From Flavobacterium sp. KACC 22761 (GTDB taxonomy: Bacteria > Bacteroidota > Bacteroidia > Flavobacteriales > Flavobacteriaceae), in NCBI RefSeq assembly GCF_034058155.1, contig NZ_CP139148.1:2666001-2730000 (forward strand): 64,000 nucleotides of DNA. Reading direction: 5' to 3'. Positions 52,893 through 57,975 of this stretch are shown here, piece by piece (positions within the stretch are counted from its first letter, which is position 1; the number at the start of each line of letters is the position of its first letter). A program made the translations under genes and the position numbers. A model generated the notes under the pieces. The model had not been told where the DNA came from. It made no database searches and saw nothing but the letters and a program-made list of their open reading frames with translations.

Positions 52893-52903
52893 TTTTTTGT
52901 CTC

Positions 52904-52922
52904 GTCCTGAAAAAAGTTGACT
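52904..52922 (+). repeat. IS left terminal inverted repeat
   Basis: GTCCTGAAAAAAGTTGACT, matching the right end in 18 of 19 positions. Confidence 0.9.
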
Positions 52923-52937
52923 ATAATTAACTTAATT

Positions 52938-53312
52938 ATGTCACTAACAAGAGAAGTATTTAAAAGAATTGTGCCTGATTGCACTTACAGTGAGGCATTC
53001 AAAAAACAGGTTGTAAAAGAATTTGAACTGGGATTATTTTGCAAGGCAGATCTTCGCCGTCGTTACCAAATCAGAAGTCATAGCTGTATCGACAGTTGGT
53101 TAAGAAAATATGGTAAATTTACATATCTGGAAAAACTAACACTGGGACGACCTATGAAAGATCCTCAATCTCAACGCATCAAAGAACTCGAAGCTCAATT
53201 AGCTAAGAAAGAGCAAGAATTATTGGTCTTTAAAAAGTTTATTGAAATAGCCGAACGCGAGCTAAAAATCGAGATTGTAAAAAAGTCTGGTTCCAAGCAG
53301 TCCAAGAAATAA
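52938..53312 (+). CDS. IS3 transposase OrfA
   Basis: A 124-residue DNA-binding subunit with an N-terminal helix-turn-helix (YSEAFKKQVVKEFELGLFCK, SHSCIDSWLRKYGKF). A leucine-zipper-like coiled coil follows (RIKELEAQLAKKEQELLVFK). The ATG at 52938 is preferred to the in-frame codon at 52917, which lies in the terminal repeat. Alone it binds the IS ends and regulates transposition; fused to OrfB by frameshift it gives the active enzyme. Confidence 0.9.
   Translation: MSLTREVFKRIVPDCTYSEAFKKQVVKEFELGLFCKADLRRRYQIRSHSCIDSWLRKYGKFTYLEKLTLGRPMKDPQSQRIKELEAQLAKKEQELLVFKKFIEIAERELKIEIVKKSGSKQSKK
53279..53285 (+). promoter_or_regulatory. -1 frameshift slippery site in the IS3 transposase
   Basis: A AAA AAG in the OrfA frame is the classic IS3 heptamer. 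Slipping back one base enters the OrfB frame, which is open from here without interruption. Confidence 0.8.
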
Positions 53313-54205
53313 ATCGTATATACAGGGTTAGTCCTTGTGAAATATGTCGATTGTTTGGATACAGTAAACAAGCTTATTACAAACGAAAATCACATCTATT
53401 AAAGTCAATTCCCGACAAAGTACATCTCAAATCTTTGGTAATGTCGGTTCGTCAAAAGCTGCCAAAAACCGGTGGCAGAAAACTGCATTATATGCTGAAA
53501 GATGATTTAAAAAGACATCAAATAAAGATTGGCAGAGATAAATTGTTTGATTTTTTACGTGATGAATATTTATTAGTCCCTAAAGCTAGAAGATATTACA
53601 AGACAACAAATTCAAGACATTGGATGCGTAAATATCCAAATTTAATAAAAGAAATCAAGCTCAATGAGCCTGAGCAGGTTTGGGTTGCTGATATTACTTA
53701 TCTAAGAACTAAAGAACAAACATATTACCTGCATTTGATAACAGATGCATACTCGAAGAAAATTGTAGGTTATAATTTATCGGATAATTTAATGGCTTCT
53801 TCTACATTAGAAGCTTTAAAGATGGCTGTCGGTAATAGGAAATACAGCAGAAATCTCATACATCATTCAGATAGAGGTCTTCAATATTGCAGCAAAGAGT
53901 ACACGGAATATTTATCTCAAAGCAAGATTCTGATAAGTATGACACAAAACTATGATCCATATGAAAATGCAGTTGCAGAAAGAGTAAATGGTATTTTAAA
54001 AGAAGAATTTGGATTATCTGAAATCTTTGAAGATTTTGAAAATCTGAAAAAGCAAGCTCTAGAATCTATTTTATTTTATAATCAAATAAGAGTGCATTTA
54101 TCAATAAATATGCTGACTCCAAATCAAGCACATTTACAAAATCAAATCAAACTCAAAAGATGGAAAAAAACAAATCGGAACAAAAATAATTCTGTTCCGA
54201 TTTAA
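53285..54205 (+). CDS. IS3 transposase OrfB (DDE integrase domain)
   Basis: Read after the -1 shift, this part adds 306 residues, giving a fusion of about 422. The segment before the catalytic domain (IYRVSPCEICRLFGYSKQAY) is typical of IS3 OrfB. The rve core has all acidic residues: Asp in EQVWVADITYL, Asp in LIHHSDRGLQY and Glu in NAVAERVNGILKEEF. There is no ATG near the beginning of the OrfB frame, consistent with expression only by frameshift. No stop codons or deletions are seen, so the element could be active. Confidence 0.9.
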   Translation, partial: VWFQAVQEINRIYRVSPCEICRLFGYSKQAYYKRKSHLLKSIPDKVHLKSLVMSVRQKLPKTGGRKLHYMLKDDLKRHQIKIGRDKLFDFLRDEYLLVPKARRYYKTTNSRHWMRKYPNLIKEIKLNEPEQVWVADITYLRTKEQTYYLHLITDAYSKKIVGYNLSDNLMASSTLEALKMAVGNRKYSRNLIHHSDRGLQYCSKEYTEYLSQSKILISMTQNYDPYENAVAERVNGILKEEFGLSEIFEDFENLKKQALESILFYNQIRVHLSINMLTPNQAHLQNQIKLKRWKKTNRNKNNSVPI

Positions 54206-54226
54206 TTAATTTTATATTACTAATCG

Positions 54227-54245
54227 AGTCAACCTTTTTCAGGAC
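54227..54245 (-). repeat. IS right terminal inverted repeat
   Basis: The complement reads GTCCTGAAAAAGGTTGACT. The end lies 7 bases from the xrtN stop codon. Confidence 0.9.
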
Positions 54246-54252
54246 AACTCAT

Positions 54253-55482
54253 TTAAATTTTGACTGTTTCGTTGATCAAACGGACAGGTTTGTTTGAAAA
54301 TAATTTGATTAAAAGAACTTCAGGAAGCGAAGTATATTTTCTGGAATCGCATTCGTACCACCAGTAAGAATTATATTTGACATTGTTTTTCTCCATTTTC
54401 ACCAACCAGATTTTTTCATTTGCGTTGCTTATTTCTTTTTTCTCGATGATTTTATAGCCCGCTCCAGTCCAACATATTAAAGGGTTATGGGCAGGAGTTT
54501 TAATATAAATAAGTTTGTTAGAAGTCGTAATCTTGAATACTTCGTTATTGACCCAAACACCATTTTGAATAGCATATTCTGGACTGATGTTTTCAAGTAA
54601 GTTGTGAGGCTGTATTTTTTTGATTTCAAAACTAGTTCCAACGGTTACGATTGTTCCAGCGATGGCAAAGAAAACTGTGTGCCACATTTTTTTCGTTTCG
54701 ACTTCTTTTGTTTTGGGTTTAAAAAATCGGATGAAAAAAAGCATTGGAAGAATTTGATAAAATACAAAACAAAGAATTCCGATAGAATGATGCAATACGT
54801 TTTCTTCAGTACAATTGAATAAAACTAGTGTAATAATTCTGAAATAATTTGAAATAATATTCAGAATTATTACTACGGCGCAAAAAAGAAAAATCTGCAA
54901 AATATTGAAATGTTTTTGATGTTTCTTTTCTTCAAGCGTCAATAAAAATGCGCCAGACAACAATCCGGTTTTGAACATGGACAATCCTATGCAAGCGGTA
55001 TCAATAGTAATTTTTGCGTTATCGATGTAAAAGTTGACGCCTTCTATCTTGTCGATCGAAATAAAGTTCTTCAAAACTAAATAAACATAGTAGCAGAGAG
55101 ATTGTTTGATTTCGGTCGTCAAATAGTCAAAAAACGTATTGAAGATGGAAGAGAATAACAAAATGCAGATAAAAGCAATAAATGAAAATTTTTGAGTAAC
55201 ACCGTAATACAAAAGGCATACAAACAAAGCTAGAGCCAGAAAATGCACAGATTGCGTATGTAGTCGATAACTAATGAATTCTAAAACAATAATTGATGCT
55301 AAAAGAGGATAGTTGAGATTAAGACTCGTTTTTTTGCCACCAAAAACAAACAATCCAATTGAGGCTATTATCCCGAATAAATTATTGTTTAATCCATTAA
55401 GTACAATACTTTGGTTTAAAAGCAACAGAAGACAAACGATTAGCAGTACCGCAACTTTTTTGTATTGGAGTGTTGAATTCAT
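54253..55482 (-). CDS. xrtN: Exosortase N
   Basis: A 409-residue integral membrane protease/transpeptidase of the exosortase family. About eight hydrophobic segments carry the catalytic triad: Cys164 in DTACIGLSMFKTG, Arg215 in SNYFRIITLVLF and His231/232 in NVLHHSIGILCF. A C-terminal extracytoplasmic domain (about 275-409, with LICWTGAGYKIIEKKE) resembles EpsI-like exosortase partners. Exosortases recognise a C-terminal PEP-type signal, and the only visible target is the VIT protein encoded directly upstream. The start codon abuts the upstream stop (TAA-ATG), implying translational coupling. An IS3 element ends 7 bases past the stop. Confidence 0.9.
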   Translation of the reverse strand: MNSTLQYKKVAVLLIVCLLLLLNQSIVLNGLNNNLFGIIASIGLFVFGGKKTSLNLNYPLLASIIVLEFISYRLHTQSVHFLALALFVCLLYYGVTQKFSFIAFICILLFSSIFNTFFDYLTTEIKQSLCYYVYLVLKNFISIDKIEGVNFYIDNAKITIDTACIGLSMFKTGLLSGAFLLTLEEKKHQKHFNILQIFLFCAVVIILNIISNYFRIITLVLFNCTEENVLHHSIGILCFVFYQILPMLFFIRFFKPKTKEVETKKMWHTVFFAIAGTIVTVGTSFEIKKIQPHNLLENISPEYAIQNGVWVNNEVFKITTSNKLIYIKTPAHNPLICWTGAGYKIIEKKEISNANEKIWLVKMEKNNVKYNSYWWYECDSRKYTSLPEVLLIKLFSNKPVRLINETVKI

Positions 55483-57975
55483 TTAGGCTAGTTGTTTTTT
55501 GTTTTTTCGGTAATAGAAATATAAAGCAGAAATTCCAATTATGATTAAAAGCCATTCATGAGGTTCAGGAACTGATCCATCATTATTTATGGAAGCATTT
55601 CCTAATGTGTTCACATTTTTTTCAATGCCATTTTTGGCATAATCTTCATCTGTTTCTAAGACAATTAAAGAAGAAATTGGTGTTACTATGTTGGCATCTT
55701 TTGCCAATTCAACATATTGGTTTGAAGCCAAAGTATCATTTTTGATTTTTACTTGTTCTTCTAAAACTTTTCCAAAAGCGTACATTCTGTAAATATGATT
55801 TGGGCCGTTGCTTTTTGAAGTGCTGTCTGCAATGTTTTCATGAATTGAAATTTGAGCAGGTTCAATATTGATGCTGTTTTCATCTGTTTTGTACGATGGA
55901 AATTGTTGTTTTTTGATCAGATTCAAACTTTTGTCCAAACTGCATTGAAAATAATCAACATATTTTTGCTCTTTTACAGTTTGCCAAAAAGGATTAATAT
56001 CGGTGCTGATATTAATGACTTTTATGTTTTTTTCTGTTGTATTAGTTTTAATTTCTTTCAGATAATTGGAATCTTCAAGTTCTTCAAAATTGGCAGAAAA
56101 TGTTCCCGATTTTGTAATGATTAAAGTATTTTTGGCTAATTGGTAAAGTGGAAGCAAAGAATAATGGTAGTTTTCAAAATCCAATTGAATGGCTTTGAAA
56201 TTCTCGGCATTAATTTGTGTTTTTTTACCATTTACAAAAACGTAAAGATTCTTTTGGTTTAAATTTATAAAAGCTTCGATTTGTTTAGTTGTCCAATTGT
56301 CATTCAGATCCAATATTATTTCAGAAGGAGTGAAGGGAATAATCGTTTTCTGGATATTTTGAATTTCGTACACTTTGTTTTTCCATACAAATGCTTGCGA
56401 ATTAATTTTAGGTAAAGGCATAGTCGCATCCCATTCATCCAATCCTGTAGATTGATTGATGAAAAAACCTTTTTCAAGTTCAAAATCCTTACTGGTTTCT
56501 ATAGCGGTGTTTCCAACAGTTTGTATTCTTGAAATTGTTTTAGCATTTGAAATGTTTGGTCCTTTTGTTGAAAGGCTCTGATATTTTAAAATATTATCCT
56601 CTACCTTCAGAGGAGTGGTAAAGCCGCATTTGAATTTTCTAGGTGTTTGTTTGTTTACTGGGAAAACTCGAACTACAACTTTATTTCCTTCTCTCCATTG
56701 CAGTAAAGAAGGATCACGATATTCTACGCCAACAATCTGTTTGTATGCTTTTTTTGCTTTTTCCTTTGTTGTCAAGACGCCTTTTCGCTCAATTCCGTTT
56801 ACCCAAAGTGAAAGTGAAGTAGCAACAGATCCTTCCGGCAATTGAAAAGAGTAAATAGCCTCTTGATTATTCCAAGCTTTTACGTCGGATGCAATATCCA
56901 TCGTGATTTCGGTATAGGCTAATCGCGTATTGGGATAAAGTTTTACATCTTCTTTAATGGCTTTTGTGAGTACATTTTCACCGCTCCAAAGCTGTTCTTC
57001 GGTTTCAAGTCTTTTGTCAAAATTTGATTTTAGAATATTTATTTTGTCATCATTTGTTAGGCCTGAATCTTCACAAAACCAATAGGCAATACTGATAAAC
57101 GGATTATGGATTTTGGTTTTGTTGAACTGTTGATTGCTGAATGAATCAAATCCGTCAAATGAGAAAAAGTTATTTTTGTCAAAATATACAATATCCTTCT
57201 TTAATAAGATCTCGTTAAAAAAATTGGGTTTTAAATTCTGTGAAACCGAAATGTATCGTGGTAAATCTTCATCAGAATTAAAAGAATTGATTCTGGCACT
57301 TTGAATTATTTTGTTGTTTTCGACAACTAATCCAATAGTGAAAATCGAAAAACCGACTAGTACAAGCCCAAATCCGGCGGTAAAAGAAAGAAAATAGATT
57401 CTGTTTTTTGACAAATTCACAATGACAGTTAGCAAATGAATAATTAAAATTATTCCTGGCACCAGGCCATAAAATCCCATTCCGAGAGCTAAAATTCCAA
57501 TAAATGAAAATGGTGTCAATGGAATAAGGTATAAGGCAAAATAAAAGATGATCCAAAATGAAATTCCGTTTATAAAATAAAATAGGAATGTACGAGGGGT
57601 TTTAATAAAATCTTGATAAAGAATAAAATTCGTAAAGCAAAAAATAAAAGTGGTAACATATACCCATATAGGTAAATCTTGAAAAACCGGAATAAAAACA
57701 TTCAAGCTAAAGCAACCAATAAGCCAATTCAGCATTAGAAAAGGAATTAGATGAACGTATTCGTTTTTGTTTTTTAAAATTGAAAAAGAGATAAGAGTAC
57801 CATATAAAAATTCAATCATAAGACTGACTACCCCGATTGATTCGTATTCGTTAAAAGATAATTTTTTAAAGGTTAAAGAACAAATCATAAAGATGGTGCT
57901 GAAAATGGTAACCACAAGACTTGACTGTACTCCAGGTTTTTGGTAATAATCTAAAATTTCTGTTTTGTATTTCAT
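55483..57975 (-). CDS. XrtN-system VIT-domain membrane protein
   Basis: An 830-residue substrate candidate for XrtN. Residues 1-225 form about seven membrane helices. A VIT domain spans about 345-470 (AYTEITMDIASDVKAWNNQE; GVEYRDPSLLQWREGNKVVV). A vWA-like part follows, ending in NIVTPISSLIVLETDEDY, the usual closing block of VIT-vWA proteins. The place of the metal site reads ILDLNDNWT (about 553-561) rather than DxSxS, so the MIDAS looks lost. The C-terminus has VPEPHEWLL (802-810), a hydrophobic helix and a basic tail, a PEP-type sorting signal. It is first in the operon, from a consensus promoter. Confidence 0.88.
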   Translation of the reverse strand: MKYKTEILDYYQKPGVQSSLVVTIFSTIFMICSLTFKKLSFNEYESIGVVSLMIEFLYGTLISFSILKNKNEYVHLIPFLMLNWLIGCFSLNVFIPVFQDLPIWVYVTTFIFCFTNFILYQDFIKTPRTFLFYFINGISFWIIFYFALYLIPLTPFSFIGILALGMGFYGLVPGIILIIHLLTVIVNLSKNRIYFLSFTAGFGLVLVGFSIFTIGLVVENNKIIQSARINSFNSDEDLPRYISVSQNLKPNFFNEILLKKDIVYFDKNNFFSFDGFDSFSNQQFNKTKIHNPFISIAYWFCEDSGLTNDDKINILKSNFDKRLETEEQLWSGENVLTKAIKEDVKLYPNTRLAYTEITMDIASDVKAWNNQEAIYSFQLPEGSVATSLSLWVNGIERKGVLTTKEKAKKAYKQIVGVEYRDPSLLQWREGNKVVVRVFPVNKQTPRKFKCGFTTPLKVEDNILKYQSLSTKGPNISNAKTISRIQTVGNTAIETSKDFELEKGFFINQSTGLDEWDATMPLPKINSQAFVWKNKVYEIQNIQKTIIPFTPSEIILDLNDNWTTKQIEAFINLNQKNLYVFVNGKKTQINAENFKAIQLDFENYHYSLLPLYQLAKNTLIITKSGTFSANFEELEDSNYLKEIKTNTTEKNIKVINISTDINPFWQTVKEQKYVDYFQCSLDKSLNLIKKQQFPSYKTDENSINIEPAQISIHENIADSTSKSNGPNHIYRMYAFGKVLEEQVKIKNDTLASNQYVELAKDANIVTPISSLIVLETDEDYAKNGIEKNVNTLGNASINNDGSVPEPHEWLLIIIGISALYFYYRKNKKQLA

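What the first reader, a model, noticed from the sequence alone, without database searches (positions are those of the whole stretch)
54253..57975. Dedicated exosortase N and single VIT-domain substrate as a two-gene operon
The upstream gene encodes a multi-spanning VIT-domain protein ending VPEPHEWLL, a hydrophobic helix and a basic tail. The downstream gene is an exosortase with Cys164, Arg215 and His231/232. The genes abut (TAA-ATG) behind a TTG-N17-TAACTTTG promoter. Exosortases usually serve many PEP-CTERM proteins, whereas this layout suggests one enzyme for one client. The family names (exosortase N, XrtN-system VIT protein) are known, but to my knowledge the role is not. A membrane protein with seven N-terminal helices as sortase client is unusual.
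Basis: partly seen in the sequence, partly recalled or inferred. Interest (0 to 1): 0.72.

Follow-up and report, generated by a model that had tools for sequence, protein, structure and literature searches.

The report
One exosortase paired with one client
A bacterium of the Flavobacterium group carries a membrane enzyme that seems to exist only to trim the tail of the protein encoded next to it; the pair is a known but unexplained family, and one relative that has lost the enzyme gene has also lost the tail signal.

Summary
Window 54253-57975 (minus strand) holds an XrtN-system VIT protein and exosortase N, abutting as TAA|ATG; both exceed their NCBIfam cut-offs. One enzyme for one client is well supported: searches of the own genome found no second copy of the tail signal; of 398 genomes of its genus 49 carry both genes, always adjacent, one the client alone, none xrtN alone. 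The signal is longer than VPEP: NA[SA]x4GxxPEPxEW, kept in 72 of 74 paired loci from Flavobacterium to Pedobacter and Chitinophaga. The one genome with the client but no xrtN has lost PEP, a natural knock-out that ties signal to enzyme.

Added here: XrtN carries a C-terminal EpsI-like domain with its own invariant H-x-P-x2-C motif; the client's periplasmic part is modelled like inter-alpha-inhibitor heavy chain 1; outside Flavobacterium the pair mostly follows a membrane-protein/HTH_34 pair also found before XrtK/MSEP-CTERM, and creD in 5 of 12 loci. Best explanation: XrtN cleaves this one inner-membrane client at PEP and perhaps transfers its new C terminus to an envelope acceptor. Cleavage, acceptor and purpose are inferred. 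New member of a known, uncharacterised kind.

The parts
55483..57975 (-). XrtN-system VIT protein (client), 830 aa
   Evidence: TIGR04477 831 bits, PF08487 VIT 46 bits
54253..55482 (-). exosortase N (xrtN), 409 aa
   Evidence: TIGR04476 333 bits, PF09721 30 bits
58007..58034 (-). Bacteroidota-type promoter TTG-N17-TAACTTTG, 31 bp before the client start
   Evidence: a match at about this place in 35 of 59 loci
57283..57930 (-). client residues 16-231: 7-8 N-terminal membrane helices
   Evidence: hydropathy, AlphaFold2 model
55639..56985 (-). client residues 331-779: VIT plus vWA-like ectodomain modelled like inter-alpha-inhibitor heavy chain 1
55552..55599 (-). client residues 793-808: sorting signal NASINNDGSVPEPHEW
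   Evidence: motif NA[SA]x4GxxPEPxEW in 72 of 74 paired loci; high conservation
55486..55551 (-). client residues 809-830: C-terminal helix and basic tail
   Evidence: sequence, helix 805-829 in the model; not over the threshold of the hydropathy scan
54724..55461 (-). XrtN residues 8-253: exosortase membrane core with C164, R215, H231
   Evidence: residues invariant in 35 sequences; model
54256..54573 (-). XrtN residues 304-409: C-terminal EpsI/DUF3485-like domain with invariant H332, P334, C337, W338, G340, G342

Best explanation
The operon makes one inner-membrane protein and the exosortase that serves it alone. SHOWN: strict pairing in the genomes searched, a single signal found in the genome, invariant catalytic residues, a long conserved signal, loss of the signal in the one genome where xrtN is gone. 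INFERRED: the client inserts with 7-8 N-terminal helices, puts its VIT/vWA-like ectodomain in the periplasm and threads its C-terminal helix back through the membrane. XrtN Cys164 (with Arg215 and His231) attacks next to PEP at the periplasmic face, forms an acyl-enzyme and releases the C-terminal helix; the EpsI-like domain takes part in recognition or in handing over the acyl group. Since the client stays anchored by its other helices, cleavage does not free it: it frees the C terminus of the ectodomain, either as an activation step or to join it to an envelope acceptor.
For: Pairing: 49 of 398 genomes with both, 1 client only, 0 xrtN only; in all 49 the two matches are neighbours by coordinates. 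74 of 74 genome-contig loci with both genes have them adjacent. Single client. Signal: PEP 74 of 74, PEPxEW 73, full motif 72; residues 786-810 average 3.59 bits, the highest of eight segments that I cut (VIT 3.38, C-terminal tail 2.21), although the model is disordered at 801-803. Natural knock-out: G458/L237 keeps an 833-aa client, tblastn finds no XrtN in the 14 kb around it, and its tail reads NATIDDVPGSPLNYQW; TIGR04476 finds nothing in that genome and TIGR04178 one hit in a 215-aa frame only. 5 of 190 listed client homologues lack PEP. EpsI-like domain: a stand-alone protein over the PF11984 cut-off, one small gene away from an exosortase, matches XrtN profile positions 329-398; hhalign 95%, E 3e-8, against four such proteins.
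Against: No experiment on any XrtN or client was found. The knock-out argument rests on one genome with context, 90% complete in 320 contigs; the context of P0260, P0274, P0284 and P0293 is unknown, and P0241 (94% identical to the G458 client) is not independent. The best tree needs two losses of PEP, but its well-supported branches force only one. By 16-residue windows the VIT core (starts 371-389) is more conserved than the signal and 761-764 equals it. Damaged xrtN beside an unchanged client tail argues against tight coupling: L182 has an in-frame stop, L219 an in-frame deletion of the EpsI-like core with the C337 region; G399 shows a similar gap and may be the same organism as L219. These may be recent, sequencing errors, or mean that the domain is dispensable. 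The membrane topology is ambiguous.
Confidence: 0.72

Rival explanations
1. XrtN is a general exosortase with further clients whose signals are too unlike this one to be seen.
For: XrtF's substrates are unknown and predicted to be unlike PEP-CTERM (PMC10936215, passages), so divergent signals are conceivable; Pfam PF07589 did not detect even the known client.
Against: xrtN never occurs without its client in 398 genomes; the tail motif is kept over very divergent pairs; the tail profile finds one site.
Confidence: 0.1
2. XrtN does not cleave the client; it is a folding, insertion or complex partner and the signal is a docking peptide.
For: No cleavage of any XrtN client was found reported; a polytopic client does not need release.
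Against: Cys164, Arg215 and His231 are invariant in 35 sequences down to 21% identity, as is the EpsI-like H-x-P-x2-C motif; docking alone does not explain why catalytic residues are kept.
Confidence: 0.12
3. The client is processed by the genome's other exosortase, XrtF, and XrtN has another job.
For: XrtF and its partner are in the same genome.
Against: In G458 an exosortase of XrtF size remains (not family-scanned), xrtN is not found and PEP is lost.
Confidence: 0.03

Closest known systems
Exosortase N / XrtN system VIT domain protein (NCBIfam TIGR04476, TIGR04477)
   Same: Both proteins exceed the curated cut-offs; same gene order and signal as the relatives
   Different: Nothing essential; here an IS3-family insertion has landed right behind xrtN
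Exosortase K / MSEP-CTERM protein (TIGR04287, TIGR04286)
   Same: Adjacent pair in the 7 loci examined (the seven best below-cut-off matches); client homologous over the membrane and VIT parts (L240: 177-575 against 29-439 of TIGR04477); 3 of 7 loci have the same upstream membrane-protein/HTH_34 pair as XrtN loci outside Flavobacterium
   Different: XrtK is small (173-197 aa), so has no room for the EpsI-like domain, and precedes its client; signal MSEP instead of PEPxEW; our client scores 63 bits against a cut-off of 150
Exosortase O (TIGR04489) and TIGR02921 PEP-CTERM integral protein
   Same: XrtN aligns to XrtO over nearly full length including the C-terminal extension (L131: 5-411 against 19-434 of 451); the client matches TIGR02921 in the VIT domain and, in L131, at the C-terminal end
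   Different: All these scores are below the cut-offs; that XrtO and TIGR02921 are partners is recalled, not tested
Inter-alpha-inhibitor heavy chain 1 (ITIH1, PDB 6fpy)
   Different: The client is an inner-membrane protein; its vWA-like first strand ends D-x-N instead of the D-x-S-x-S (recalled) of a MIDAS; no glycan link is known
Classical PEP-CTERM/XrtA-type systems
   Same: C-terminal PEP, helix, basic tail; exosortase core
   Different: One client instead of dozens (35 PEP-CTERM proteins and one exosortase in Nostoc punctiforme, PMC12188702, passages); a longer fixed signal

Membership tests
TIGR04476 exosortase N | score over the curated cut-off (200 bits) across the full model | tested here: met
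   333 bits, residues 9-402 against 2-406 of 406
TIGR04476 exosortase N | exosortase catalytic Cys, Arg, His (motif recalled) | tested here: met
   C164, R215, H231 invariant in 35 sequences
TIGR04476 exosortase N | catalyses cleavage of its target | not testable with these tools
   needs a deletion mutant and mass spectrometry
TIGR04477 XrtN system VIT protein | score over the curated cut-off (250 bits) | tested here: met
   831 bits
TIGR04477 XrtN system VIT protein | C-terminal PEP, membrane helix and basic tail next to xrtN | tested here: met
MSEP-CTERM protein TIGR04286 | score over the cut-off (150 bits) | tested here: not met
   63 bits
Classical PEP-CTERM system | one exosortase serving many proteins in the genome | tested here: not met
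   one signal found in the genome
EpsI / DUF3485 domain in XrtN | over the PF11984 gathering score | tested here: not met
   not listed for the window XrtN, L229 or L131; similarity seen only by profile comparison, so called EpsI-like
Inter-alpha-inhibitor heavy chain | VIT followed by vWA with this domain arrangement | tested here: met
Inter-alpha-inhibitor heavy chain | MIDAS metal site in vWA | tested here: inconclusive
   D556 kept in 32 of 32, N at 558 in 29 of 32 rows; not superposed residue by residue
Inter-alpha-inhibitor heavy chain | C terminus esterified to a glycan | not testable with these tools
   needs chemistry

The most novel reading that the evidence does not exclude
VIT-vWA proteins form a recurrent class of one-to-one clients of C-terminal transfer enzymes. 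XrtN (and XrtK, perhaps XrtO and the marine sortase whose target is TIGR03788) would cut off the tail and join the freed carboxyl to an envelope sugar or lipid, as happens to inter-alpha-inhibitor heavy chains in vertebrates. The client would then tie the inner membrane covalently to the envelope as a stress-related strut, controlled with CreD and the HTH_34 regulator in Sphingobacteriales.
Probability: 0.17. Interest if true: 0.87.

Novelty: new member of a known kind. Interest (0 to 1): 0.5.

Why it matters
To what exosortases attach their substrates, if to anything, is to my knowledge still open. A system with one enzyme, one client, one signal and at least one natural loss in a cultivable genus is far easier to test than one with dozens of clients. 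The model also gives the client an ectodomain like the vertebrate heavy chains, which are joined to a glycan by their C terminus, so it suggests a concrete acceptor experiment.

Full report
Observation. Two minus-strand genes fill 54253-57975: an 830-aa VIT-domain protein and, abutting it as TAA|ATG, a 409-aa exosortase. NCBIfam names them XrtN-system VIT protein (831 bits) and exosortase N (333 bits), well over the cut-offs. The promoter pattern alone is at chance level, but a match lies 28-36 bp, mostly 31, before the start in 35 of 59 loci of L162-L224 (four loci left out).

One enzyme, one client. The genome (G000, one contig of 5.04 Mb; unnamed, but its nearest named XrtN is 94% identical in Flavobacterium zhairuonense) gave two exosortase-family matches: XrtN, and XrtF beside its usual partner. 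Of 33 sites coding VPEP, the other 32 were read in frame and none is followed by a helix and a basic tail at the end of a long frame. A profile made from 14 client tails hits the client at E 1.3e-25; the next four matches have E 1.86 or worse and begin after PEP. In 398 genomes of the genus xrtN is in 49 and the client in 50, the 49 being shared and the genes neighbours by coordinates. In the family at large the client is rare (1 of 299 over the cut-off, the own genome), and in the phylum xrtN is over the cut-off in 5 of 395, four of them of the own genus.

A long signal. A scan of named genomes gave 75 loci (the best 80 of 89 relatives, merged), from Flavobacterium, Pedobacter, Mucilaginibacter, Chitinophaga and others. 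In 74 both genes are present and adjacent; the other, L225, is a broken remnant. PEP is kept in 74 of 74, PEPxEW in 73, and NA[SA]x4GxxPEPxEW in 72, although XrtN identities fall to 21%. Residues 786-810 average 3.59 bits, the highest of eight segments that I cut (VIT 3.38; N-terminal helices 2.31; tail 2.21; 32 rows, the five PEP-less rows left out). By sliding 16-residue windows the VIT core is higher still (up to 4.03) and 761-764 (3.80-3.82) equals the signal (3.80 at 793). The model is disordered around 801-803. A disordered yet conserved tail is what a peptide recognised by a partner should look like.

A natural knock-out. G458 is the only genome of the 398 with a client and no xrtN. The 833-aa client is intact, tblastn finds no XrtN in the 14 kb fetched around it, and its tail reads NATIDDVPGSPLNYQW: the sorting motif is gone while a hydrophobic stretch and basic tail remain. 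The search of that genome for exosortases finds one hit in a 215-aa frame; TIGR04178 missed the known XrtN of G395 in the same call, so the TIGR04476 search is the stronger negative. Of 190 client proteins in the capped lists of two searches, five lack PEP; the best tree without tails needs two losses, though its well-supported branches force only one. Context is known for G458 only. Against this, L182 and L219 have damaged xrtN and an unchanged client tail; G399 shows a gap like that of L219.

XrtN anatomy. The model (pLDDT 83.8, 35 sequences) shows the exosortase helices, one more helix (269-287) and a domain at 304-409. That domain has its own invariant residues H332, P334, C337, W338, G340, G342 in 35 sequences. 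Profile comparison with four such proteins gives 95% and E 3e-8. So XrtN looks like an exosortase fused to an EpsI-like module, though PF11984 itself is not reached.

Neighbours. In Flavobacterium the pair mostly sits at one place: an aconitase-like gene precedes it in 47 and a MoxR-like gene follows in 48 of the loci L162-L236 (names recalled from sequence). Outside that genus I looked at 12 XrtN loci (L226, L228-L236, L238, L254). A homologous small membrane protein lies upstream in 9, an HTH_34 regulator near it in 8, and creD (all five over the cut-off) directly before the client in 5; in L228, L236 and L238 I saw none of the three (L236 is cut by its contig end). The same membrane-protein/HTH_34 pair precedes XrtK/MSEP-CTERM in 3 of 7 loci, with 49-50% identity of the membrane protein to that of L229. 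XrtK lies directly before its client in 7 of 7 (only the L240 client was scanned against TIGR04286). The two dyads thus share client ancestry and, in part, operon surroundings. CreD was not found in the own genome.

Mechanism. Shown: pairing, single signal found, invariant catalytic residues, long conserved signal, loss of signal with loss of enzyme in one genome. Inferred: cleavage near PEP through Cys164; role of the EpsI-like domain; transfer to an acceptor. If the client keeps its N-terminal helices, cleavage cannot serve release; it must either switch the ectodomain or attach it. An F. johnsoniae study found xrtF and its partner needed for surface colonisation and named the exosortase substrates as future work (PMC10936215, passages). 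No work on XrtN was found.

Verdict. The finding is real and its reading holds. The pair belongs to a named, uncharacterised family, so it is a new member of a known kind; the long signal, its decay, the EpsI-like fusion, the heavy-chain-like ectodomain and the partly shared operon surroundings are what this work adds.

Noticed in passing
window 52896-54253: An IS3-family insertion of about 1.36 kb (ORFs 52917-53312 and 53351-54205) begins at the xrtN stop codon, give or take a few bases; the relative L162 has no insert there. xrtN stays complete.
   Followed up: partly
L182:10001-11221: Flavobacterium potami xrtN has an in-frame stop between the exosortase core and the EpsI-like domain; fission, decay or sequencing error.
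   Followed up: partly
L219:9986-11086: xrtN with an in-frame deletion of the EpsI-like core while the client keeps its signal; G399 has a similar gap.
   Followed up: partly
L229:5964-7331: creD stands directly before the XrtN client in five loci (four Pedobacter, one Chitinophagales MAG); a link between exosortases and CreD was not looked up in the literature.
   Followed up: partly
L240:2055-9785: XrtK/MSEP-CTERM sits behind an HTH_34 regulator, a DUF4153 protein and several small membrane proteins on one strand.
   Followed up: no
G000:C1:1074456-1074839: A second, weak TIGR04477 match over the VIT part (34.5 bits, 1159-aa frame) in the own genome, not an XrtN client by score.
   Followed up: no
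L034:4576-5548: XrtF and its associated membrane protein in the same genome, overlapping ORFs; its substrate is unknown.
   Followed up: no
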